From Clostridium thermosuccinogenes (GTDB lineage Bacteria > Bacillota > Clostridia > Acetivibrionales > DSM-5807): a stretch of 64,000 nucleotides of DNA. Shown one piece after another: positions 1,712 to 50,667 of the stretch; the first letter of the stretch is position 1, and each line of letters opens with the position of its first letter. The position numbers were made by a program, and so were the translations under genes. Under the pieces are notes generated by a model. The model was not told the DNA's origin and made no database searches. It was given only the letters and a program-made list of their open reading frames with translations. The stretch lies in contig NZ_CP021850.1 of NCBI RefSeq assembly GCF_002896855.1, forward strand, positions 2,939,665-3,003,664, given 5' to 3'.

Positions 1712-3295
1712 TTAGGGTGCCTTGTATGAATCATTACGGCACCAGGAGGGTAGTTCAGGTGACCACGGTAGATAAGGTGTCAGAGATTCATGCGTCAATT
1801 CCTTTAAGCTTGGTAAATTTGTCAGTAGATGCACCAAATACATATATGGATTAAGTTGATTTGCTTTGGCAGTTTCTATCATGCTGTAGACAATAGCACT
1901 GGCCTTGGCTCCGCGAGTTGTGTCGGCAAACAGCCAGTTCTTCCTGCCTGTGACATACGGACGAATGGCATTTTCGGCTCGATTGTTGGAAAGCTCGATT
2001 CGTCCATCCAACAGGAAACGATTCAATGATTCCTTTTGATTCAATGCATATGTGATCGCTTTCCCCAGATTGGAGTTTGGCAGCGGATTTAGTTGTTGCA
2101 CCCATTCCCAGAACTCATCAAGAAGGGGTTTCATATTTTTAAGTCGTTCTTCATACCGCCTTTCAGCGGATAGTTCCTCCCATTTCTTGTCCATGGCAAA
2201 CAGACGGTTACAATAATCATATCCGATAGCCGCCTTGGAAGTCTTAGTGTCAGCCCCCTGGGGAATTGCTTCTTCGAATTTGCGTTGTAAATGAGCCCAA
2301 CATCCACAATGTATAACATCAGGCACTGCATTGTAGCCACTATAGCCATCTGTCTGAAGGTAACCCGAAAAACCCTCAAGAAATCTTCGGGCATGCTGGC
2401 CGGATCGTGTCGGTTGGTATTCAAATAAAACAGCCGGGGTTGGACTTCGCCCGGAAGTGTAGACCCACATCCGCGATTCTGTCGTTGCTTTCCGTCCCGG
2501 TTCTTTTAATACCTGCAGTACAGTTTCGTCTGCATGAATCAGGGGTTCGGAAATCAAGTGCTTATGAATGGCATTGTACATTGGTTCAAGCCATTCATGG
2601 CTTGGACGTATGATCCAGTTTGCCAGGGTGGCTCTGGAAAGTGTCACCCCCTGATTTGCCCAGTCTTTCTCCTGCCGGTATAAAGGCATTCCGTTGGCAT
2701 ATTTCTGATACATAACATAAGCAACTGTTGAGGCAGAAGCAAGGCTGCGTTTCATGACCGGGGCTGGAACCGGCGCTTTGACAATGTTGGCATCTCCGGT
2801 TTCCTTCTCGCAGACGGTACACACATAATTAAAACGAATGTATCTCAATACTCTTACTTGGGCAGGGATAATCTCAAGTTCATCCCTGACATGCTCCTTG
2901 CCCAGATATCTAAGGTCAGCCTGGCAAATACCGCAAGAGCGCTTGTCCTCGTCAAGGTCACAAACAACCTCCACTACAGGAACTGTCTGTGCCAGTTCTT
3001 CCTTTGTTCTTTTAGGTTTTCTGGTATGGGCAGCCACAATTGTCTGTACGGTAGGTTCTTCTGCTTTGTTGTTCGCTTCGACCTCTGCTTCGTTGAAAAG
3101 TGAGATTTGATCGTTGTCTTCTCCTAAAACATAACGACGCTTTTCGCTGGATTGGCCGTATAGAGCTTTTTGGGATTTGATAAGAAGCTCTGTAAGCTGG
3201 TTGATACGGATTTGCTGGTTTTCCACTATTTTTTCCAGAGTGGAAACATATTCAATTTGTTCTGGCGTAAGCCCTGTAAAATTTATCTTTTGCAT
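1712..3295 (-). CDS. tnpC: IS66 transposase TnpC (DDE)
   Basis: This is the catalytic transposase of the IS66 element. From the N-terminus it shows a coiled-coil start, the YGQSSEKR segment, a Cys-rich zinc-binding part (CGICQADL, then CTVCEKE) and a catalytic core with D in HADETVLQVL, D in LQTDGYSGY and E in NRAENAIRPYV. From the ATG at 3295 it has 527 residues, the usual size. A GTG at 3364 would add 23 residues that are not conserved in the family. Neither start has a good ribosome site, so translation is probably coupled to tnpB, whose stop lies 76 bases upstream. Confidence 0.93.
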   Translation of the reverse strand: MQKINFTGLTPEQIEYVSTLEKIVENQQIRINQLTELLIKSQKALYGQSSEKRRYVLGEDNDQISLFNEAEVEANNKAEEPTVQTIVAAHTRKPKRTKEELAQTVPVVEVVCDLDEDKRSCGICQADLRYLGKEHVRDELEIIPAQVRVLRYIRFNYVCTVCEKETGDANIVKAPVPAPVMKRSLASASTVAYVMYQKYANGMPLYRQEKDWANQGVTLSRATLANWIIRPSHEWLEPMYNAIHKHLISEPLIHADETVLQVLKEPGRKATTESRMWVYTSGRSPTPAVLFEYQPTRSGQHARRFLEGFSGYLQTDGYSGYNAVPDVIHCGCWAHLQRKFEEAIPQGADTKTSKAAIGYDYCNRLFAMDKKWEELSAERRYEERLKNMKPLLDEFWEWVQQLNPLPNSNLGKAITYALNQKESLNRFLLDGRIELSNNRAENAIRPYVTGRKNWLFADTTRGAKASAIVYSMIETAKANQLNPYMYLVHLLTNLPSLKELTHESLTPYLPWSPELPSWCRNDSYKAP

Positions 3296-14340: not shown

Positions 14341-15912
14341 TTATTTATTGGGCACTTTGCAATGACCCGGAAGATTTGCTGACCATGGCAACAAGGTGTC
14401 TAATGCATGTTGATCCTTGATATTTATATTCGGTAGACGTTCAAAGAGATAAGTAAGATATTCAAACGGGTTCAACCCATTCTCTTTTGCCGTCTCCACA
14501 ATACTGTAAATTGTTGCGCTGGCATTGGCTCCTTTAGGCGTGTTGCTAAACAGCCAATTCTTCCTCCCGATTACAAAAGGCTTTATCGACCGTTCACTTC
14601 GGTTGTTATCAATCTCTAGCCTGCCGTCCAGCATAAAGGCCTCCAGCTTGTCCCACTGGTTCCGGCAGTATTGGATTGCTTTTCCTAATGAACTTTTGGG
14701 AGTTACTCTTGGACTCCAGTATTTGAGCCATTCCTTGAATTTATCAAGCACTGGTCGGCTGTGTTTCAATCGGCCCTCATATCTTTCTTCCGGTGTAACA
14801 TCATGAAGCATTTTTTCTATCTCAAACAAGTTATTGCAAAATGCCAAACCTTCTTCTGTTACTGTGGGCTTGTCATCTTTTTTTGGAGGCATGGCTTTTA
14901 AGGCGTCGACAAAATAACGCCTTGCATGTGCCCAGCAACCAACCTGGATGATTCCGGGCATGCCACTATAACCATCATACCCATCCGTATGAAGGTAACC
15001 TTTGAATCCTTCAAGAAATTTTTTAGGATGTTTGCCAGCCCTGGTAGTTTGGTAGTCATAAAGAATAATCGGAGGCCCTTCCCGGCCGGTCCGGTATAGC
15101 CACATGTAGGAGGTTGAATCTGCGGCTCGCCCGGGTTCCTTGAGTACTTGGAGGGTAGTATCATCGGAATGGAGGATGTCCCTTTGCTGCAAGTGTTCCC
15201 GCATTCGTTCATATATCGGCCGCAGCCACCTGTCGGAGCTTTGTATCATCCAGTTCGCCATGGTTTGCCTGGATATTTCAATCCCCATCCTCTCCCAGTC
15301 CTGCTCTTGACGATAAAGAGGAAGCCCTTTTACAAATTTCTCCGTCATTACATGAGCTATGGCGGATGCCGAAGCCAGGCTTCCAGGAAGTGCCGGCTTT
15401 GGCATTGGGGCTGTTACTATCGGTGTAGATATTTCATTCTTCTCGCAATTACGGCAGCCATATACATACTGCACATGTTCCTTTACACGCACCTGAGCCG
15501 GAATAATTTCTATTTCCCGCCTTACTTCCTTGCTCATTTCATGCAGTTTGCCGCCACAGCAATCACAAACCTGCTCTTCTTCAGGCAAGCGATACTCTAT
15601 GGTCTCTACAGGAATGTCTTTAAGCATTTCTTCTCTGTGCCCCTGCTTTTTACGACGTTTATATGTAATTTCCTCTAATGTTGGTTCGGGAACTGCAGGC
15701 TTGGCTTCTGATTCCGCCTCGTTGAAAAGATTTAGCTGTTCAGGGACTTCCGTCTTTTCACTTGAACGCCCAAAAAGCTTATGCTGATGCAGCCGGAATT
15801 GTTCTTCAAACCATTTGAGTTTTGCTTCAAGCTCGGCTTTTTCCTGCTTCAATATTTCAATTTCTGTTTGGAGTTTTTCTATTGTAACCGTTGATTTCAC
15901 TGTGTTTTCCAT
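14341..15912 (-). CDS. tnpC: IS66 transposase TnpC (copy 1)
   Basis: This is a 523-residue DDE transposase. It has a coiled coil at residues 10-45, LFGRSSEK at about 46-53, zinc-binding cysteines CDCCGG (about 115) and CRNC (about 152), and catalytic D in LHSDDTTLQVL, D in LHTDGYDGY and E in NNRSERSIKPFV. It is intact and identical in sequence to the proteins encoded at 27473 and 41566. Confidence 0.94.
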   Translation of the reverse strand: MENTVKSTVTIEKLQTEIEILKQEKAELEAKLKWFEEQFRLHQHKLFGRSSEKTEVPEQLNLFNEAESEAKPAVPEPTLEEITYKRRKKQGHREEMLKDIPVETIEYRLPEEEQVCDCCGGKLHEMSKEVRREIEIIPAQVRVKEHVQYVYGCRNCEKNEISTPIVTAPMPKPALPGSLASASAIAHVMTEKFVKGLPLYRQEQDWERMGIEISRQTMANWMIQSSDRWLRPIYERMREHLQQRDILHSDDTTLQVLKEPGRAADSTSYMWLYRTGREGPPIILYDYQTTRAGKHPKKFLEGFKGYLHTDGYDGYSGMPGIIQVGCWAHARRYFVDALKAMPPKKDDKPTVTEEGLAFCNNLFEIEKMLHDVTPEERYEGRLKHSRPVLDKFKEWLKYWSPRVTPKSSLGKAIQYCRNQWDKLEAFMLDGRLEIDNNRSERSIKPFVIGRKNWLFSNTPKGANASATIYSIVETAKENGLNPFEYLTYLFERLPNINIKDQHALDTLLPWSANLPGHCKVPNK

Positions 15913-40817: not shown

Positions 40818-41138
40818 ATGACCAAAGCAGATCTTTATCAAAAATGGGCATCCATAATTGCAGAGTACAAATCCAGCGGACAGACGCAAACTTCATTTTG
40901 CAAATCCGCGGGGATAAGTCTTCGTCAGTTAAGCTACTGGTTGAGAAAAGAAAGACAAAACGGAATCATACAATCAGAATCTCCCAAATGGATTCCGGTA
41001 GAAGTAGATCATAAAGAGCATACAGGCAAAGGCCAATCAATCGAAATCAAATTTGGCCCAGCTGAAGTTCAAGTCAAACCAGGCTTTGACCAGAAGCATC
41101 TGTTGGATGTGCTAATGGTGCTGAGGGAATTATGCTGA
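40818..41138 (+). CDS. tnpA: IS66 accessory protein TnpA (copy 3)
   Basis: This 106-residue protein is identical to those at 16340 and 29472. Its ATG follows GGAGG by 10 bases. It is the first gene of the element's transcript and overlaps tnpB by 7 bases. Confidence 0.88.
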   Translation: MTKADLYQKWASIIAEYKSSGQTQTSFCKSAGISLRQLSYWLRKERQNGIIQSESPKWIPVEVDHKEHTGKGQSIEIKFGPAEVQVKPGFDQKHLLDVLMVLRELC

Positions 41139-41488
41139 GCATAGCCGGCACCGACAAGGTCTACCTTGCCTGTGGAAGTACCGACATGCGTAAGTCTATC
41201 GATGGCCTGGCTGCCATCGTCCAGCAAAGCTTCGCATTAGACCCCTTCTCGTCTTGTCTATTTGTGTTCTGCAATAAAAAACGTGATAAGCTTAAAATCC
41301 TCCAATGGGAACATAATGGTTTCTGGCTATATTACCGGAGGCTTGAAAAAGGCAAATTCCAATGGCCTAAAGAAAGTTGCGGCACTCCAATGAAGGTTGG
41401 TGTCCGTGAACTGGGTTGGCTGCTGGATGGACTATCCTTGGAGCAGAAGCAGGCACACAAAAAAGTGACAGTAAGTGCAGTAATATGA
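41132..41488 (+). CDS. tnpB: IS66 accessory protein TnpB (copy 3)
   Basis: This 118-residue IS66 Orf2 protein (DMRKSIDGLAAIV, LFVFCNKKRDKLKIL) is identical to the other type-B copies. Confidence 0.93.
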   Translation: MLSIAGTDKVYLACGSTDMRKSIDGLAAIVQQSFALDPFSSCLFVFCNKKRDKLKILQWEHNGFWLYYRRLEKGKFQWPKESCGTPMKVGVRELGWLLDGLSLEQKQAHKKVTVSAVI

Positions 41489-41565
41489 ATACTTTCAAGA
41501 CAAAAATATTTATATTTTTTATCATTTTCCTGGAAAAAACCGTAGAAAAATGATATAATAAAATT

Positions 41566-43137
41566 ATGGAAAACACAGTGAAATCAACGGTTACAATAGA
41601 AAAACTCCAAACAGAAATTGAAATATTGAAGCAGGAAAAAGCCGAGCTTGAAGCAAAACTCAAATGGTTTGAAGAACAATTCCGGCTGCATCAGCATAAG
41701 CTTTTTGGGCGTTCAAGTGAAAAGACGGAAGTCCCTGAACAGCTAAATCTTTTCAACGAGGCGGAATCAGAAGCCAAGCCTGCAGTTCCCGAACCAACAT
41801 TAGAGGAAATTACATATAAACGTCGTAAAAAGCAGGGGCACAGAGAAGAAATGCTTAAAGACATTCCTGTAGAGACCATAGAGTATCGCTTGCCTGAAGA
41901 AGAGCAGGTTTGTGATTGCTGTGGCGGCAAACTGCATGAAATGAGCAAGGAAGTAAGGCGGGAAATAGAAATTATTCCGGCTCAGGTGCGTGTAAAGGAA
42001 CATGTGCAGTATGTATATGGCTGCCGTAATTGCGAGAAGAATGAAATATCTACACCGATAGTAACAGCCCCAATGCCAAAGCCGGCACTTCCTGGAAGCC
42101 TGGCTTCGGCATCCGCCATAGCTCATGTAATGACGGAGAAATTTGTAAAAGGGCTTCCTCTTTATCGTCAAGAGCAGGACTGGGAGAGGATGGGGATTGA
42201 AATATCCAGGCAAACCATGGCGAACTGGATGATACAAAGCTCCGACAGGTGGCTGCGGCCGATATATGAACGAATGCGGGAACACTTGCAGCAAAGGGAC
42301 ATCCTCCATTCCGATGATACTACCCTCCAAGTACTCAAGGAACCCGGGCGAGCCGCAGATTCAACCTCCTACATGTGGCTATACCGGACCGGCCGGGAAG
42401 GGCCTCCGATTATTCTTTATGACTACCAAACTACCAGGGCTGGCAAACATCCTAAAAAATTTCTTGAAGGATTCAAAGGTTACCTTCATACGGATGGGTA
42501 TGATGGTTATAGTGGCATGCCCGGAATCATCCAGGTTGGTTGCTGGGCACATGCAAGGCGTTATTTTGTCGACGCCTTAAAAGCCATGCCTCCAAAAAAA
42601 GATGACAAGCCCACAGTAACAGAAGAAGGTTTGGCATTTTGCAATAACTTGTTTGAGATAGAAAAAATGCTTCATGATGTTACACCGGAAGAAAGATATG
42701 AGGGCCGATTGAAACACAGCCGACCAGTGCTTGATAAATTCAAGGAATGGCTCAAATACTGGAGTCCAAGAGTAACTCCCAAAAGTTCATTAGGAAAAGC
42801 AATCCAATACTGCCGGAACCAGTGGGACAAGCTGGAGGCCTTTATGCTGGACGGCAGGCTAGAGATTGATAACAACCGAAGTGAACGGTCGATAAAGCCT
42901 TTTGTAATCGGGAGGAAGAATTGGCTGTTTAGCAACACGCCTAAAGGAGCCAATGCCAGCGCAACAATTTACAGTATTGTGGAGACGGCAAAAGAGAATG
43001 GGTTGAACCCGTTTGAATATCTTACTTATCTCTTTGAACGTCTACCGAATATAAATATCAAGGATCAACATGCATTAGACACCTTGTTGCCATGGTCAGC
43101 AAATCTTCCGGGTCATTGCAAAGTGCCCAATAAATAA
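41566..43137 (+). CDS. tnpC: IS66 transposase TnpC (copy 3)
   Basis: This 523-residue DDE transposase is identical to the proteins at 14341 and 27473. All catalytic segments are intact, so the three copies could act on one another's ends. Confidence 0.94.
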   Translation: MENTVKSTVTIEKLQTEIEILKQEKAELEAKLKWFEEQFRLHQHKLFGRSSEKTEVPEQLNLFNEAESEAKPAVPEPTLEEITYKRRKKQGHREEMLKDIPVETIEYRLPEEEQVCDCCGGKLHEMSKEVRREIEIIPAQVRVKEHVQYVYGCRNCEKNEISTPIVTAPMPKPALPGSLASASAIAHVMTEKFVKGLPLYRQEQDWERMGIEISRQTMANWMIQSSDRWLRPIYERMREHLQQRDILHSDDTTLQVLKEPGRAADSTSYMWLYRTGREGPPIILYDYQTTRAGKHPKKFLEGFKGYLHTDGYDGYSGMPGIIQVGCWAHARRYFVDALKAMPPKKDDKPTVTEEGLAFCNNLFEIEKMLHDVTPEERYEGRLKHSRPVLDKFKEWLKYWSPRVTPKSSLGKAIQYCRNQWDKLEAFMLDGRLEIDNNRSERSIKPFVIGRKNWLFSNTPKGANASATIYSIVETAKENGLNPFEYLTYLFERLPNINIKDQHALDTLLPWSANLPGHCKVPNK

Positions 43138-43187
43138 TATATATTATGCCCCTGCTAAATCAAAGGTGGGGGCTATTTGACGCTTAC

Positions 43188-44057
43188 TTTGTTCAAATTG
43201 CACAGCTTCTTCGTACGTATGAAGATATTTGAATATTTCATCGTTATTGTGAACTATGCCATGTTTCTCTCATTCGTGATGAAATATCTCCATCAGTTTT
43301 TCGTTATTATCACTTTTCAGTTCATAGCTAAAGCCGTATTTTTTATGATAAATTTGCCTTAAGCCCGGAAAGTGCTCATCAAGTTTTTATAAAAGTATTC
43401 TCTGCTTCCCTCTCTCAAAGTTAATCCCATTCCAAAGCAAATTATTCCAATCACTTCAGCATCAATGCAATAATCAAGTATGCCTTTAAGATTTTCCTCC
43501 GTATCATTTATAAATGGTAAAATTGGATCAAGCCATACTATAGTGGGAATCCCATTGTCCCTCATTTTTTTCAGAACTTCGTAACGCTTTTTAGTTGTGC
43601 ATACTGCAGGCTCAATTAATTTGCACAGGTTCTCATCATATGTTGTCATAGTCATCTGAACAACGCATTTCGATTTGTTATTTATGCTTTTTAATAAATC
43701 CAAATCCCTTAGTATTCTGTCTGATTTGGTCTGAATACTTAGTCCGAATCCATACCTGTCAATAATTTCAAGGCACTTCCGTGTATGGTTGAGCTCTGTT
43801 TCAATATGCATGTATGGGTCGCACATGGAACCAGTTCCTATCATGCATTTTTTGCGTTTTTTCCTGAGGGCATTTTCCAGAAGCTCAGGAGCATTTACCT
43901 TAACCTCTATATCCTCAAAATCATGCTCCATCTTATAGCACTTGCTTCTACTATCGCAATAGATGCAGCCATGGGTGCAGCCACGATATACATTCATTCC
44001 GTTATTGGCAGATAAAATTGTCTTTACCTCTTTGTAGTGCATATTGCCCATCCTCAC
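43188..44057 (-). pseudogene. SPL-family radical SAM protein, frameshifted and cut by IS66 copy 3
   Basis: The 5' frame (GTG 44057 or, better supported by GAGGATGG, ATG 44042) carries the radical SAM cluster motif CTHGCIYC (about residue 27) and runs to a stop at 43359 after YKNLMSTFRA. In the next frame the true C-terminus continues: LDEHFPGLRQIYHKKYG, a TGA in HHE*EKHGI, then YLHTYEEAVQFEQ up to the IS66 border. Beyond the element the last codons read MTLF-stop (40712-40733), rebuilding the typical end EQ(M)TLF. So three lesions are visible: a one-base shift in an A run, a nonsense codon and the insertion. Intact relatives are DNA-photoproduct-lyase-like proteins of about 300 residues. Confidence 0.88.
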
Positions 44058-44185
44058 TGCTTTTCGTATAATTCCAAAAGCTTTCTTGCCCTATCGGTAA
44101 TAATGTTCATGATATGCTGGGGCTCCAAAACCTTCACATAACTGCCGAATGATAGTAAATGCCCGTAAACCCATTCATCTACAAT
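44054..44185 (-). pseudogene. C-terminal remnant of a WYL-domain transcriptional regulator
   Basis: A frame without start reads CGGIIVDEWVYGHLLSFG, SYVKVLEPQHIMNIITDR and ARKLLELYEKQ, ending in a TGA that overlaps the GTG of the radical SAM gene. The LLSFG..VKVLEP stretch is the end of WYL (YafY-type) regulators. Upstream the frame is closed by a TAA. The overlap implies that regulator and radical SAM gene were once one operon. Confidence 0.65.
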
Positions 44186-44400
44186 TATACCGCATTAATA
44201 TGACAACAGATAGTCATATTTGGAAACTTTACCTGCCTATTGCTTACAGTTCACACCCGCACCGGCAAAAAGCAAAAAGAAACGCCTGTAGACCCTTGAT
44301 ACTGTTCCATTTAGGTCATTACCTGCTAATAGTTTTCTGCATACTCCCTGCCATCTTACAAATGCATAGGTACCGTCAAGATTTTTTCGCAAAATCAATT

Positions 44401-45670
44401 ACCGGTTGGTAAGCATTGATTAGCCGACAGTCATTAATGAATCATCCATGTCGAATTCTTCAAGGTGTTTCATGCTCATGTAGCGCTTAGTTCCCCAGTC
44501 CTTGCTTGCAACATAGCGTAACCTTGCACAAACTAACATTAAGGCTGAGTTTCCATCAGGGAAGGTTCCTACAACCCTTGTCCTGCGCCTGATCTCTCGA
44601 TTAAGTCGTTCAATAACATTATTACTCCGCAATTTTTGCCAATGGGCATAGGGGAAATCCATGTAAGCCAGCGTTTCCTCGATGCCCCTTTCTATCTTAT
44701 CAGCTGCTTCTTTAAGTTTCATTTCTCGTAGTTTCTTAACCACACTCTGTGCCTTTTGCCTTGCTGCTTCTTTATTCTCTTGCGCATGAATGGCTTTCAG
44801 CATTACGGCTACCTCTTTTATCTTGGAACTTGGGGTAACTGTAAATACATTTCGATAGAAATGAACGGTACAACGCTGATACTTTGCATCCGGATAAACC
44901 TCATTTATTGCCTCTAAGAGTCCCAGGCACTTATCTCCTATGAATAGCTGGACTCCAGTTAGTCCTCGCTCCTTTAAACCTGCAAAAAGGCTAGCCAGCT
45001 TGCTTTATCTTCTTTCATTCCTTCAGCGGCACCAATGACTTCTCTGTAGCCTTCTTCGTTTACCGCCATTGCTATGAGAATGGATACATTCTCATATTCG
45101 CCACCCCAGTTGCGTTTTAAATAGATTCCATCCAGGTAGACATACGGATATCTATTTTTCAGTGGTCTATTACGCCATGCATCAATATGTACATATACTT
45201 TCTTATTTAGTTCACTGATAGTGCCAGGAGAGACTCTTGTCCACCAAAGGGCTTCGGTAATATCCTCGACTCGCCGTACCGATACACCCGCCAAGTACAT
45301 TTCTATTAGAGCTTCTTCCACTGAACTTTCACTCCGACGGTATCGTTCAATTATTGCTGTTTCAAAGGCTATCCCTTTTAATTTAGGCATCTTTAGCCTC
45401 ACATTTCCCGATGTTGTGGTCAGATTTCTTTCATAGTGACCGGATCTATAGCCCTGCCTTTCCGAAGTGCGCTCATAGCGTTCTGCTTTAGTTAGTTCTG
45501 CCGCCTCTTGCTCCAATAACTGATTAAGAGTTTCCTCAACACTACTGCGAACTAAATCTTTTAATTCCTGCTTTATTACGCCTTCATTTAGTTGTATAAT
45601 TTTATCTGACATGGTTCGTAACCTCCTTTGGTTGGTTTTTGTGTAGCAACTTAATTCTACCAAACGGTTA
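44401..45670 (-). mobile_element. IS256-family insertion sequence, inactivated
   Basis: Outer sequences ACCGGTTGGTAAG (44401) and its imperfect complement (CTACCAAACGGTT, ending about 45668) could be the terminal repeats. The borders are approximate and no target duplication was found. It encodes a frameshifted transposase different from the one at 19185. Confidence 0.7.
44420..45612 (-). pseudogene. IS256-family transposase with frameshift
   Basis: The first frame (ATG 45612 after GGAGG) gives MSDKIIQLNEGVIKQELKDL to KASWLAFLQ, including the first catalytic Asp in YVYLDGIYLKRN. It then ends near 44975. The frame shifts at a T run: LFAGLKERGLTGVQLFIGDK, CLGLLEAINEVYPDAKYQRC and VHFYRNVF follow in another frame, carrying the second Asp, and the Glu lies in NVIERLNREIRRRTRVV. 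One deleted T explains it. IS256 elements do not normally use programmed frameshifting, so this is read as a dead copy. Confidence 0.85.
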
Positions 45671-45833
45671 CGTCCATGTCATTTTTTATTGGACTTTTAT
45701 GAATTTGCGAAAAATATTATACTTTATCAATGCATACAGAAGCCTTCGATCTACTAAATTTAATAATTAGACCCTCATGCCACTAAAGTAGCACCATCAA
45801 ATTGATGAAAACGAGCAGCCGTTACGGTATACT

Positions 45834-46009
45834 ATAGACATACGGTGAAGAAGGTCGAACTATCTTGGTGCGTGAGAGCCCGTGGATTAGACTGATTTCA
45901 GCTTCCTGCTTGTACCACAAATTGTTGCCCCTTACAGGGAGCACGCAGGGTAGAATAATGAAGTACAGGGAGCTGCGCCGGAATATTACAACCATAGGAG
46001 TTGATATTA
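45834..46009 (+). ncRNA. candidate bridge RNA of IS110 element 1
   Basis: The noncoding leader starts after a TATACT box (45828-45833) and ends at the transposase start. A long-range pairing links CAGCTTCCTGCTTGTAC (45899-45915) with GTACAGGGAGCTG (45963-45975), and TACAGGGAGC occurs twice (45933-45942, 45964-45973). In IS110-type elements this region is known to give an RNA that guides the recombinase to donor and target DNA. Assignment here is from position and pairing only. Confidence 0.5.
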
Positions 46010-47218
46010 ATGGAAGTAGTATACCAGCGTTGTTGTGGGTTGGATGTCCATAAGGACAAAATTGTTGCATGTGTGATTACTGAAAGCAAGAAAGAGATTC
46101 GCAGTTACGGGACAGTAACCGAGTCGTTGATTGAGCTGGTAGATTGGCTGAAAGAAGAGAGCTGTGAGAATGTTGCAATGGAAAGTACAGGATCTTACTG
46201 GAAGCCAATATACAATCTACTTGAATTGGAGGAGATACCGGCAATGGTAGTCAATGCCCAGCATATCAAGGCGGTGCCGGGCAGAAAGACGGATGTCAAA
46301 GATGCAGAGTGGATAGCGGAGCTTTTAAGGTATGGACTTCTTAAAGGTAGCTATATACCAAACCGGGAGCAACGTGAATTAAAAGAGTATATACGATATA
46401 GGCGAAGCATGATAGAAGAACGTGCCCGCGAATTAAACCGGGTACAAAAAGTGCTTGAAGGGGCAAATATTAAGCTTTCATCAGTAGTAAGCAACATAGA
46501 TGGAGTATCATCAAGAAGAATGCGTGAGGAAATCATAAAAGGTACTGAGGATACAGAAGTGCTTGCAGCCTTGGCTAAAGGTAAAATGAAGCAAAAGACA
46601 GATGAACTTAAGAAAGCTTTAAAAGGACTTATAGGAGAACATCAGAAAAAGATATTATCCACCATGCTAAGACACATTGACTTTTTGGATGCTGAGATTG
46701 AAAAGCTTGATGCAGAGGTCAAAGAACGTATGCGCCCTTTTGAGGAACAGGTGAAGCGTTTGGATTCAATAGCCGGGGTTGGAGAGCGGAGTGCACAGAC
46801 AATAATAGCAGAAATAGGAACTGACATGAGTGTATTTCCGACAGCGAATCACCTGGCATCCTGGGCATGGATGTGTTCCGGTAACAATGAAAGTGCGGGA
46901 AAGAAAAAGAGTGGAAAGACTAAAAGCTTAAGAAGTACGCTGGTGGAATGTGCAAAAGCGGCAGGTAGAAGCAAAAACAGTTATCTTTCAGCACAATATA
47001 AACGAATCGCAGCACGAAGAGGACGTAATAGAGCAACGGTTGCAGTTGGGCACAGTATTTTAGTAATAGCATATCATCTGATAAAAAACAACGTAGACTA
47101 TCAGGAGCTTGGAGCAGACTATTTTGAACAGCGCAGGAAGCAAGATATCGTAAAGAGAAGTATAAAGCGCCTTGAAGCCTTAGGCTTTAAAGTAACTATA
47201 GAAGAGAACGTGGCATAA
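46010..47218 (+). CDS. IS110-family DEDD transposase/recombinase
   Basis: This 402-residue enzyme has an N-terminal RuvC-like DEDD domain (CGLDVHKD, Asp 12; VAMESTGSYW, Glu about 58; KTDVKDAEW, Asp about 99 and 102), a coiled-coil linker (about 130-240) and a C-terminal Tnp_20 domain with LDSIAGVGERSAQTIIAEIG and the catalytic-Ser region. The ATG at 46010 follows AGGAG by 10 bases; an upstream TTG would add three residues. The gene is intact. Confidence 0.94.
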   Translation: MEVVYQRCCGLDVHKDKIVACVITESKKEIRSYGTVTESLIELVDWLKEESCENVAMESTGSYWKPIYNLLELEEIPAMVVNAQHIKAVPGRKTDVKDAEWIAELLRYGLLKGSYIPNREQRELKEYIRYRRSMIEERARELNRVQKVLEGANIKLSSVVSNIDGVSSRRMREEIIKGTEDTEVLAALAKGKMKQKTDELKKALKGLIGEHQKKILSTMLRHIDFLDAEIEKLDAEVKERMRPFEEQVKRLDSIAGVGERSAQTIIAEIGTDMSVFPTANHLASWAWMCSGNNESAGKKKSGKTKSLRSTLVECAKAAGRSKNSYLSAQYKRIAARRGRNRATVAVGHSILVIAYHLIKNNVDYQELGADYFEQRRKQDIVKRSIKRLEALGFKVTIEENVA

Positions 47219-47527
47219 GAAATTTTTTTTCAAAGCCAGTACTGTTTGGGTAGTGGCTTGGGTGGGTGTTTTTGTGCCTTCGAAGTAACTAAAATTTTTC
47301 AGGATAGAGATATCAGCAAAGCAGCTGAAAATTAAATTTCTAAGTATTTTTCTTTGCATTCCTATTATGCACTCCACGTGGCTTGTGTTTGTAGAATTGA
47401 TGTTATTTGTTATTGCCCGTTCTCGGAAACATATCCACTGCATTTTTGTCACTTTTGGTAGACGAAAACATGTCCATTACGACGTGAGATATAAAGGATG
47501 CGTTTTAATAAATATTAATAATAAGTA
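47219..47527. other. right noncoding end of IS110 element and flank
   Basis: This 309-base AT-rich stretch is without a gene. The first part is presumably the IS110 right end. Near 47410-47480 a sequence similar to IS21-type ends (TGCATTTTTGTCACTTTTGG, and AAACATGTCC) is seen, but no IS21 gene is present. Confidence 0.45.
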
Positions 47528-47812
47528 TTAATAATAAGGTTTAGAAATAGGTAAAATTTTTCTGATTTCAAATATCAGACAAATACTAAATAATATTTCT
47601 ATGGCTATCATCATAATTGCAATCACATAAGGCCCAAAATTAACACCAATTATAAGGGATACAATGGGTATTAAGATAGCGAACACTATATAAGATTTAG
47701 ACTTATATAGCCAATCATATGGTAACAAAAGTGCTACAAAAATCACTGCGATTATCATTGGCATTTTTTCAGGTAATGTTGGATATATCCACATAGCAAT
47801 TAATAAATATAA
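47528..47812 (-). pseudogene. 3' part of a membrane-protein gene split by the nested insertion
   Basis: The 88-codon frame from the ATG at 47794 has three membrane segments (MIIAVIFVALLLPYDWLY, YIVFAILIPIVSLIIGV, YVIAIMMIAIEILFSIC). The frame is open further upstream (MLYLLIA...) up to the left border of the IS4-like element and continues in phase on the far side of that element (50950-51126). The gene was therefore longer before insertion. It could still be translated from the internal ATG, but the ribosome site is poor. The family is unknown. Confidence 0.6.
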
Positions 47813-48884
47813 CTATAAATGAGCAAAAACGCTAACATAATTTGGTAAAACTAAATGAGGCACCTGAAAAATCCGATATTTTTGTTGCTTACACAAAAGA
47901 TAAAGGATTGAAGATGCCCCGATGAACATTATAACATGCACAGAGAGTTTAAGAAAGTTCCTTATTGCATTAAGATTGACATTTTTACTTACAAAGCCTC
48001 AAATTGCTAATCTTGCAAGCATAATTGCTTCTGCAATGCAAGGAGGTTTTGACGGTAAAATAACAAATGTCCCGGAACTCAGCATGCGTAATGTTCACCG
48101 GACTTCTATCGGGAAATTTTTATCGAAATCACCATGGCCTACAAGCCTTGTAATGGATAAATACCAGCTATACGTACTGGCACAAATAAACTTGCAAGCC
48201 CGGAAAACAGGCTGCCCTGTATATGTGATACTGGATGATACGATTTCCGAAAAGACAAAGCCCTCGTCAAAGGCTTTGAGACCAACTGAAGGCTGTAGTG
48301 TCCACCATTCACATCTCAGGCGCAAGCGTGTTTACGGTCACCAGATTGTATGTGTCCTTCTAGAATGTGGAGGGTTAAAATTGCCTTATTACATGGAGCT
48401 TTACGATAAAGCTGTCCAGAGTAAAATCAGCATGGTTCGTAAAGTCATTGAAGGATTGCCGGATTTTCCGACAAAGGTATACGTTTTGGGTGATAGCTGG
48501 TATAGTGCTTGTTCTGTTATTCAAGCTGCTAAAGACAGAGGCTTCGAGTACATCGGCGCTTTGAGAGCGAACAGGGTTCTTTATTCTGTAGGAGGACCAA
48601 GATTAGGCCAAAAAGTTAATGCATACGTTAAAACCCTTACTGAAAAAGATGTCCGCCTTGTCACCGTGGGCAATCAGAAGTATTGGGTACACCACTATAA
48701 TGGCTATATCAAAAGGCTTCCAAAGAACGGAGTAATTTTACTCAGTTGGCCTGAAAGCAAGCTTTTTGAAGAAAAGGCTGTACATGTATTCTTCAGCACA
48801 AGCAATCTTACGGAAGAAGAAATTCTTACAACTTATATCGAAAGGTGGACGATAGAAATCTTCTTCAGAGACAATAAGATGCAG

Positions 48885-50667
48885 GCTCGAGTAAAATTAC
48901 TGTAGGGAATCAATTGGAATAAATATCCAAAAAATTGAAAAGAAGATGACATCCTGTTAAGATATAAGTCGCCAAATCAAAATACTCAACGAAAGGATGC
49001 ATCTTCTATGTACAATAGTATACAACATTTTATTGGTTTTGGTGTAAAAAAGATTGAAGAAAAGGTAAAAAAATTTGTTGAAAAGCCTACGGACCTAGCT
49101 GACCTTGTTTTGGGATTGCATGAAGAACTTCTTGAATTAGGTAGAAACATTGTTACAGAAGTTCTTGAAGATATGGATGATTATCTGCGGGAATCGGCTT
49201 CTCGCAAGCAGAACTGGGAAATTGTAAGAAAGGATAGAACAGGACTTTTAACAAGCTTTGGACCCATCAGTTATGAACGAACATATTTTAAGCCTAAGAA
49301 AGGCGGAAAAAGGCAATATCTTGTGGATAGAATAGTTGGTATCAATCCTCATGACCGAGTAAGTGCTGATGTTGTCATAAATGCTGTGGAAGAGGCTGCG
49401 GAGAGCAGTTATAGAAAAGGTGGAGAAAAAGCTGCATACATGGATGAGGTAAGCAAACAGGCTGTAATGAATAAAGTACATGAACTTGAAGTTGTTCAGC
49501 CATCGGTGGAAAAGAGAAAGGATGAGACACCAAAGATTCTGTATATTGAGGCTGATGAAGACCATGTAGCGCAGCAAGGGAAAAAGAGACATAAGACAGA
49601 AGATGAATGGGGAGCAAGTAGCACACTAATGCCTAAGCTTGTATACGTTCATGAGGGAATTGACCATGAAAAAAGCACGAAGAAGAGAAAAGTATTGAAG
49701 AATCCCCGTTATTTTGGAGGAATCAGAGATAGTGAAGAACTGTGGCTAGAGGTTTCCCAATACATAGATGATACTTATGATGTGGATAAGATTGAAACTG
49801 TATATATATCTGGAGATGGAGCAGCTTGGATAAAACAGGGATTAAACTGGATTGGTAAAAGCAAGTTTGTATTGGATAAGTATCATTTGAGCAAATACGT
49901 AAAAGTAGCAACGGCACACTTGGAAGACGAAGATATCGAACAGGAATTAGATGATGCCTTGAAAGAAGCTGATAAGGCGGGGCTTAAGAAGGCATTTGCT
50001 AAAATTCTTGAAAAGACAGAATCGGAGACAAAGAGGAAAGCGGTTAACGATGCAAAAAGATATATATTGAATAACTGGGCAGGAATAGAGATAAAGGTAG
50101 ATAACTATGAAATTGTAGGATGCAGTGCTGAAGGGCATGTAAGCCATATTCTATCCGATAGGTTAAGCAGCAGGCCAATGGGTTGGTCAAAAAATGGTGC
50201 GGACAAGATGGCCCAACTCAGAATTTTCAAGAAAAACGGAGGAAAAGTATACGACTTGGTAATGGCTCAAAAGAAGAAAGAACAACGGGAGCAGGCACAG
50301 CAGCTACAAGATGAATTAATTCGTGAATTGAGAACAAATAGGAATAGATATGATGGTGTTTGGGACAGTAATCTAACAATAATCAGTAAAGGCCATAAAA
50401 CACTGCTTTATAGAGCGCTAAGAGCCTTTGTAGGGTAACAATGAACGAAGGGAACGGCGAAGCGAACCCTTTACAATAAGAGGGACCCATATGGTATAAT
50501 GGGCTAAAGTGGCAGCCAAAAGCTCCAGAGACATTCCCCTGTTACAAGGGGTGCCGCCCTGGCTGACAAACCATATGGGAGATGCTTGTTGTCAAGGGCG
50601 TGACCGGAGTGGACTTATTTTAGGAAGTCGTCTTATCTTCAATTCCCTACAGTAAATTGACTCAATC
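48885..50667 (+). mobile_element. ISLre2-family insertion sequence, complete
   Basis: This 1783-bp element has ends GCTCGAGTAAAATTACTGTA at the left and, read from the right, GATTGAGTCAATTTACTGTA, followed at both ends by GGGAAT. It is flanked by a perfect 9-bp duplication AAGATGCAG (48876-48884 and 50668-50676), the usual size for ISLre2. The 3' noncoding part (50439-50667) is rich in potential hairpins (for example CCATATGG repeats at about 50488 and 50572) and holds a TATAAT box. Confidence 0.92.
49008..50438 (+). CDS. ISLre2-family transposase (UPF0236 type)
   Basis: This 476-residue protein is recognised by the family pattern: RTGLLTSFGPISYERTYFK near residue 80, LYIEADEDHVAQQ near 183, VYISGDGAAWIKQGLNWI near 262, then FVLDKYHLSKYV. 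It ends with EGHVSHILSDRLSSRPMGWS, the typical C-terminal part. The ATG follows AAAGGATG by about 10 bases. It is intact and probably the only active gene in this nested block. Confidence 0.93.
   Translation: MYNSIQHFIGFGVKKIEEKVKKFVEKPTDLADLVLGLHEELLELGRNIVTEVLEDMDDYLRESASRKQNWEIVRKDRTGLLTSFGPISYERTYFKPKKGGKRQYLVDRIVGINPHDRVSADVVINAVEEAAESSYRKGGEKAAYMDEVSKQAVMNKVHELEVVQPSVEKRKDETPKILYIEADEDHVAQQGKKRHKTEDEWGASSTLMPKLVYVHEGIDHEKSTKKRKVLKNPRYFGGIRDSEELWLEVSQYIDDTYDVDKIETVYISGDGAAWIKQGLNWIGKSKFVLDKYHLSKYVKVATAHLEDEDIEQELDDALKEADKAGLKKAFAKILEKTESETKRKAVNDAKRYILNNWAGIEIKVDNYEIVGCSAEGHVSHILSDRLSSRPMGWSKNGADKMAQLRIFKKNGGKVYDLVMAQKKKEQREQAQQLQDELIRELRTNRNRYDGVWDSNLTIISKGHKTLLYRALRAFVG

What the first reader, a model, noticed from the sequence alone, without database searches (positions are those of the whole stretch)
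45834..46009. Candidate bridge RNA in the leader of IS110 element 1
The leader has a TATACT box, a long-range complementary pair (45899-45915 with 45963-45975) and a 10-base direct repeat TACAGGGAGC, and contains no reading frame. IS110-group elements encode a bridge RNA here whose two loops pair with target and donor DNA. If this one is real, the two guide loops can be read off by comparison with the insertion site.
Basis: partly seen in the sequence, partly recalled or inferred. Interest (0 to 1): 0.72.

Follow-up and report, generated by a model that had tools for sequence, protein, structure and literature searches.

The report
Bridge RNA gene of an IS110 element
The stretch before this jumping gene's transposase encodes a conserved folded RNA whose loops carry short guides matching the insertion site and the element's right end, like the recently described 'bridge RNAs', but with the two target guides in the opposite order from the best-studied relative, IS621.

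Summary
Supported. The leader of the IS110-family element at about 45769-47307 carries a structured RNA at 45839-45984. A covariance model built without the window or its closest kin finds it at 105 bits (E 2e-19 in the 4.7-Mb genome, single hit). Across 47 relatives, 19 of 28 pairs show compensatory changes. The 10-base direct repeat is incidental.

With 79 elements of defined ends, the guides can be read. The core is AG. A left-target guide lies at 45884-45890, a right-target guide at 45858-45865, a left-donor guide at 45946-45953. Target guides co-vary with the flanks (mean 7.45 of 9 bases against 3.1 for mismatched pairs) and replicate in hold-out elements. In Thermoanaerobacter wiegelii the flanks rejoin into an exact CRISPR repeat.

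One twist: the right-target guide precedes the left-target guide, the order reported for IS1111 elements, although the RNA lies upstream of the transposase and the protein groups with IS621 rather than IS4321. A second: the 5' arm of the donor loop copies a left-end segment in the same sense, unexplained. This single copy matches its own site poorly (5 of 9), so its activity is uncertain. Expression is untested.

The parts
45769..47307 (+). IS110-family element, AG core at both ends (45769-45770 and 47306-47307)
   Evidence: Ends inferred from multi-copy relatives and from intact CRISPR-repeat targets in T. wiegelii. No empty site for this copy.
45776..45796 (.). Left-end DNA hairpin (CATGCCACTAAAGTAGCACCA), conserved shape in relatives
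   Evidence: Alignment of left ends; arms co-vary. Role unknown.
45790..45806 (+). Left-end segment that the 5' arm of the donor loop resembles in the same sense
   Evidence: Element-specific match: own 8.40 against 7.21 cross, z 8.6; hold-out z 3.5.
45805..45833 (+). Putative promoter ATGAAA-17-TATACT
   Evidence: not above chance by sequence alone. A -10-like box within 30 nt upstream of the RNA in 23 of 51 clusters against 26% in shuffles.
45839..45984 (+). Bridge RNA core
   Evidence: Independent covariance model R2: 105 bits, E 3.2e-21, single hit in the genome; covariation in 47 sequences.
45853..45897 (+). Loop 1 (target loop): stem 45853-45856 with 45894-45897, hairpin 45866-45871 with 45878-45882
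45858..45865 (+). Right-target guide (antisense to the top strand right of the core), AACTATCT; 45864-45865 face the AG core
   Evidence: Concordance at four positions .67.74.54.61 against .28.36.27.29; hold-out 2.22 of 4 against 1.21. This copy 2 of 4.
45884..45890 (+). Left-target guide plus core, GGATTAG (same sense as the left flank)
   Evidence: Concordance .75-.96 against .26-.55, z 7.5-10.7; hold-out 3.76 of 5 against 1.72. This copy 3 of 5.
45899..45975 (+).
   Evidence: Six of the seven core pairs have compensatory changes.
45911..45927 (+). 5' arm of the donor loop, same sense as left-end segment 45790-45806
45946..45953 (+). Left-donor guide CAGGGTAG, same sense as right end CAGGATAG (47300-47307), 7 of 8
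   Evidence: Concordance .90-1.00 over five positions.
46010..47218 (+). IS110-family DEDD recombinase, 402 aa, intact frame
   Evidence: PF01548 5e-35, PF02371 1e-14; aligns with IS621 of known structure over the catalytic residues.
47294..47307 (+). Right end, ATTTTTCAGGATAG
   Evidence: Conserved TTTTCAGGRYAG ending in nearly all relatives.

Best explanation
The leader is the gene of an IS110-type bridge RNA (seekRNA), about 146 nt, on the transposase strand. The RNA folds into two internal loops. Inferred mechanism: it binds the element's DEDD recombinase. In loop 1 a 5'-side guide (45858-45865) pairs with the top strand right of the insertion point, and a 3'-side guide (45884-45890) pairs with the bottom strand left of it, both including the AG core. 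Loop 2 recognises the element's own ends: a guide at 45946-45953 pairs with the right end, and the 5' arm probably recognises the left end. The recombinase then exchanges strands at AG, so the element leaves and enters without duplicating its target. Shown here: the fold, its strand, and its co-variation with target and ends. Inferred: transcription, protein binding, physical pairing and catalysis.
For: RNA covariation: 19 of 28 pairs changed on both sides against 8.1 in shuffles, 96.1% of cells paired against at most 44% in slid structures. An independent model finds the window RNA at 105 bits, uniquely in the genome. RNA hits in other genomes sit directly before IS110 transposases in 26 of 31 loci. 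Guides co-vary with target flanks and right end and the target guides replicate in hold-out elements. Exact empty site in T. wiegelii; uninterrupted target sites in P. brasilensis. Frequent G-U pairs fix the RNA strand. IS621 control recovers its published guide order.
Against: No transcript, binding or recombination data. This copy's target guides match its own flanks at only 5 of 9 positions. No antisense right-donor guide was found. The promoter is weak by sequence. Single-sequence folding is not significant.
Confidence: 0.92

Rival explanations
1. A bridge RNA gene that is no longer functional in this copy: a single relic whose guides and flanks have drifted apart.
For: Single copy; target match 5 of 9 against a mean of 7.45; the flanks are crowded with other, partly broken insertion sequences.
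Against: Intact 402-aa frame with catalytic residues; RNA helices intact, including the lineage-specific outer and donor stems shared with L002 and L006.
Confidence: 0.35
2. A conserved leader that only regulates transposase expression (attenuator or translational control), not a guide RNA.
For: It lies directly before the transposase and would be transcribed with it; small RNAs of the related ISPpu9 were once thought to act this way (cited in PMC11208160).
Against: A regulator would not co-vary with host DNA flanking the insertion or with the element's right end.
Confidence: 0.04
3. A conserved DNA end that the recombinase binds, with the RNA-like fold a by-product.
For: The left end has its own DNA hairpin and a short subterminal inverted repeat TGAAAA/TTTTCA; the donor-loop 5' arm resembles a left-end segment.
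Against: Many helix positions use G-U pairs, which would be A-C mismatches on the other strand, so the fold belongs to one RNA strand; guides co-vary with host flanks.
Confidence: 0.02

Closest known systems
IS621 bridge RNA (Durrant et al. 2024, PMC11208160; Hiraizumi et al. 2024, PMC11208158)
   Same: RNA in the left end upstream of the recombinase; two guide-bearing loops; left guides same-sense, right-target guide antisense; guides overlap at a two-base core; recombinase related.
   Different: Here the right-target guide is 5' and the left-target guide 3' (reverse order); core AG instead of CT; recombinase 402 aa instead of 326; no antisense right-donor guide found, instead a same-sense copy of a left-end segment; the putative promoter lies inside the left end rather than across the joined ends; the RNA model does not hit IS621.
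ISEc21 seekRNA, IS110 type (Siddiquee et al. 2024, PMC11187229)
   Same: Upstream non-coding region gives an RNA with matches to both target strands.
   Different: There the bottom-strand match precedes the top-strand match; transposase 358 aa.
IS1111-group seekRNAs (ISEc11, ISPa11, ISKpn4; PMC11187229)
   Same: Top-strand match precedes bottom-strand match, as here.
   Different: Their RNA is downstream of the transposase, they have long subterminal inverted repeats and 330-350 aa transposases; the protein here groups away from IS4321.

Membership tests
IS110 family (broad) | DEDD RuvC-like domain PF01548 plus PF02371 with conserved serine | tested here: met
   5e-35 and 1e-14; catalytic positions align with IS621.
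Bridge RNA / seekRNA | Conserved structured RNA in a non-coding end | tested here: met
   Covariation; independent model hit.
Bridge RNA / seekRNA | One loop with guides to both strands of the target, overlapping at the core | tested here: met
   at family level; this copy 5 of 9 bases.
Bridge RNA / seekRNA | Second loop with left and right donor guides | tested here: inconclusive
   Left-donor guide clear; right-donor guide antisense to the left end not found, same-sense arm found instead.
Bridge RNA / seekRNA | RNA is transcribed, binds the recombinase and directs recombination | not testable with these tools
   Needs experiment.
IS110 group (IS621/ISEc21 type) | RNA upstream of the transposase | tested here: met
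IS110 group (IS621/ISEc21 type) | Left-target guide 5' of right-target guide | tested here: not met
   Order reversed; IS621 control gives the expected order.
IS110 group (IS621/ISEc21 type) | Transposase groups with IS621, apart from IS1111-type | tested here: met
   100/100 branch separates IS4321 and ISKpn2 from the rest; long branches, so caution.
IS1111 group | Top-strand guide precedes bottom-strand guide | tested here: met
IS1111 group | RNA downstream of the transposase; long subterminal inverted repeats; 330-350 aa transposase | tested here: not met
   RNA upstream; 402 aa from the ATG at 46010; only a short TGAAAA/TTTTCA repeat, about 35 nt inside the left core.

The most novel reading that the evidence does not exclude
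A widespread Bacillota branch of IS110 elements with roughly 400-aa transposases uses left-end bridge RNAs whose target guides are in IS1111 order and whose donor loop reads the left end in the same sense (bottom strand): a third loop geometry that breaks the rule that guide order follows the IS110/IS1111 divide.
Probability: 0.5. Interest if true: 0.62.

Novelty: new variant of a known kind. Interest (0 to 1): 0.5.

Why it matters
Bridge RNAs are the basis of programmable recombinases. This gives a clearly delimited family (52 of 398 sampled genomes of the phylum carry it) with readable guides, a different core (AG) and a reversed guide order in an upstream RNA. It is therefore a test case for how the two loops are arranged in the recombinase and how the IS110 and IS1111 groups are related. 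It also shows natural elements of this kind sitting in CRISPR arrays.

Tried and rejected
Rfam scan: no hit. Single-sequence folding: not significant. The TACAGGGAGC repeat as a functional unit: not conserved. Reading the left-junction bases (e.g. TATTAG) as element end rather than target: rejected, because the flanks reconstitute intact CRISPR repeats and uninterrupted sites exist. Right-target guide by column alignment: failed because of length variation; a first anchoring without the CT-core rule gave a weak signal; recovered by anchoring on the apical hairpin and the CT that faces the core, chosen from the RNA alone. Search for an antisense right-donor guide: no credible signal. Empty site of the window copy: the left flank is the end of an IS256-type element plus about 40 unique bases and the right flank is unique at the junction, so none was found in the genome. 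An IS110 relative of 38% identity with 5 copies in the same genome does not carry this RNA. No phage record matched.

Full report
What is there. The ORF at 46010-47218 (402 aa) is an IS110-family recombinase: PF01548 at 5e-35 and PF02371 at 1e-14. It aligns with IS621 of known structure over the catalytic aspartates, glutamate and serine. It is a single copy in its 4.73-Mb genome. A scan of GTDB genome contigs gave 80 relatives at 56-66% protein identity, mostly from Bacillota, several of them multi-copy within one genome. The leaders that could be aligned (78 sequences) carry the same architecture.

Element ends. Comparing copies within genomes shows where identity stops. The left junction reads xxxxxAG-ACnCCCATG followed by a DNA hairpin; the right junction reads TTTTCAGGRYAG. 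For the window this gives 45769-47307 with AG at both ends. Two Thermoanaerobacter wiegelii copies (L061, L062) prove the assignment. Their left flank GTTTCAATTCCTTATAG and right flank GTAGGCTAAAAAC, joined, make the 30-nt CRISPR repeat GTTTCAATTCCTTATAGGTAGGCTAAAAAC, with the AG counted once; it stands uninterrupted many times alongside. In P. brasilensis, sites of the form AAAGTATT-AG-ACTG occur uninterrupted: 13 with at most one mismatch, against 2 for the control.

The RNA. Alignment of 47 leaders and a 28-pair structure (outer stem; loop 1 with stem and hairpin; loop 2 with stem and hairpin) gives 96.1% paired cells (shuffled 89.8), 19 pairs changed on both sides (8.1) and a covariation score of 0.288 (0.165); 0 of 500 shuffles reach any of these, and slid structures pair at most 44%. 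G-U pairs are frequent, so the folded strand is the transposase strand. A covariance model from 42 leaders that excludes the window and its nearest kin finds 45839-45984 at 105 bits, the only hit in the window (E 3.2e-21) and in the genome (E 2.4e-19). Run on about 400 genomes of the phylum it hits 52, the window's own among them. In 26 of 31 fetched loci, which include two from the class-level search, an IS110 transposase starts within about 75 nt downstream. It does not hit IS621, ISKpn2 or the IS4321 genes, but gives weak hits directly upstream of two other roughly 410-450-aa IS110 transposases from Rhodococcus and Citrobacter (25 and 18 bits).

The guides. I applied the concordance idea of Durrant et al. 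(PMC11208160) to 79 elements in 51 RNA clusters, permuting RNAs between clusters. RNA 45884-45888 has the same sense as the five bases left of the core (0.75, 0.89, 0.90, 0.96, 0.95 against 0.30, 0.26, 0.36, 0.35, 0.55). RNA 45947-45951 has the same sense as the last five bases before the core at the right end (0.90-1.00). On the 5' side of loop 1, the bases before the CT that faces the core are antisense to the four bases right of the core (0.67, 0.74, 0.54, 0.61 against 0.28, 0.36, 0.27, 0.29). A clean example is L028: RNA GGAACTTCT is the reverse complement of its right junction AGAAGTTCC, and RNA ATATAAG equals its left junction. Over both target guides the mean match is 7.45 of 9 bases; mismatched pairs give 3.08. 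New elements found by the RNA model alone replicate this: left guide 3.76 of 5 against 1.72 (sd 0.23, 21 elements), right guide 2.22 of 4 against 1.21 (sd 0.31, 9 elements).

Guide order. In IS621 the left-target guide is 5' and the right-target guide 3' (PMC11208158); my control on two IS621 copies recovers that order. Siddiquee et al. (PMC11187229) report the opposite order for IS1111 elements, whose RNA is downstream of the transposase, and the IS621 order for ISEc21. Here the RNA is upstream, the transposase is 402 aa and groups with IS621 away from IS4321 (100/100 branch, with a long-branch caution), yet the order is the IS1111 one. Guide order therefore does not follow RNA position. I could not see the published figures of six further bridge RNAs, so an earlier example may exist.

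A second oddity. The 5' arm of loop 2 (45911-45927) is a near-copy, in the same sense, of a left-end segment (45790-45806) between the DNA hairpin and the putative -35. The match is element-specific: own-pair score 8.40 against 7.21 for cross pairs (z 8.6), and z 3.5 in hold-out elements. The variable bases tend to change together (CAAA, CGGA and CGAA types), with exceptions. [quoted passage not shown] I have no firm explanation: it may be a left-end guide of different geometry, or a motif the protein reads in both nucleic acids.

This copy. Its own guides match its flanks at 3 of 5 (left) and 2 of 4 (right), towards the low end of 71 elements. Its left-donor guide matches its right end at 7 of 8. 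The frame is intact. I therefore accept the RNA gene but leave open whether this copy still moves. The promoter candidate (ATGAAA-17-TATACT) is no better than chance by sequence alone, and transcription is untested.

Verdict. A new member of the bridge-RNA kind, in a variant with reversed target guides. Confidence is high for the RNA and its target guides, moderate for the claim of a new geometry, and low for the activity of this particular copy.

Noticed in passing
L061:1713 and 3324; L062:1714 and 3324; L002:1474-1505 and 3082-3118: Relatives of this element sit inside CRISPR arrays in two different genomes: within the repeat itself in T. wiegelii (two copies), and one base after a repeat, in a spacer, in the window element's closest relative L002.
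   Followed up: partly
L013-L017 (same genome, outside the window): A second IS110-family element of about 415 aa (38% identical) is present in five near-identical copies with a different leader; right end ...TTTTCACACTA. The RNA model does not hit it.
   Followed up: partly
L020, L022, L032, L058, L074 left flanks: The bases left of these elements look like the right end of another copy (TTTTCATGG-AG or TTTTCAGGRT-AG), suggesting insertion next to, or into the end of, a sister element.
   Followed up: no
L123, L141, L145: The RNA model hits here without a recognisable IS110 transposase in the fetched flank: possible orphan bridge RNAs or eroded elements.
   Followed up: no
window 40818-50438: Dense insertion-sequence neighbourhood: IS66 genes (40818-43137, transposase of the same length and Pfam scores as that at 14344-15912), a broken IS256-type transposase (44423-45663), the IS110 element, a DDE transposase (47922-48905) and a UPF0236 gene (49008-50438).
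   Followed up: no
window 45776-45810 and 47296-47301: Conserved left-end DNA hairpin and a 6-8 bp inverted repeat TGAAAA/TTTTCA between left and right ends, placed about 35 nt and 4 nt inside the cores; function unknown.
   Followed up: partly
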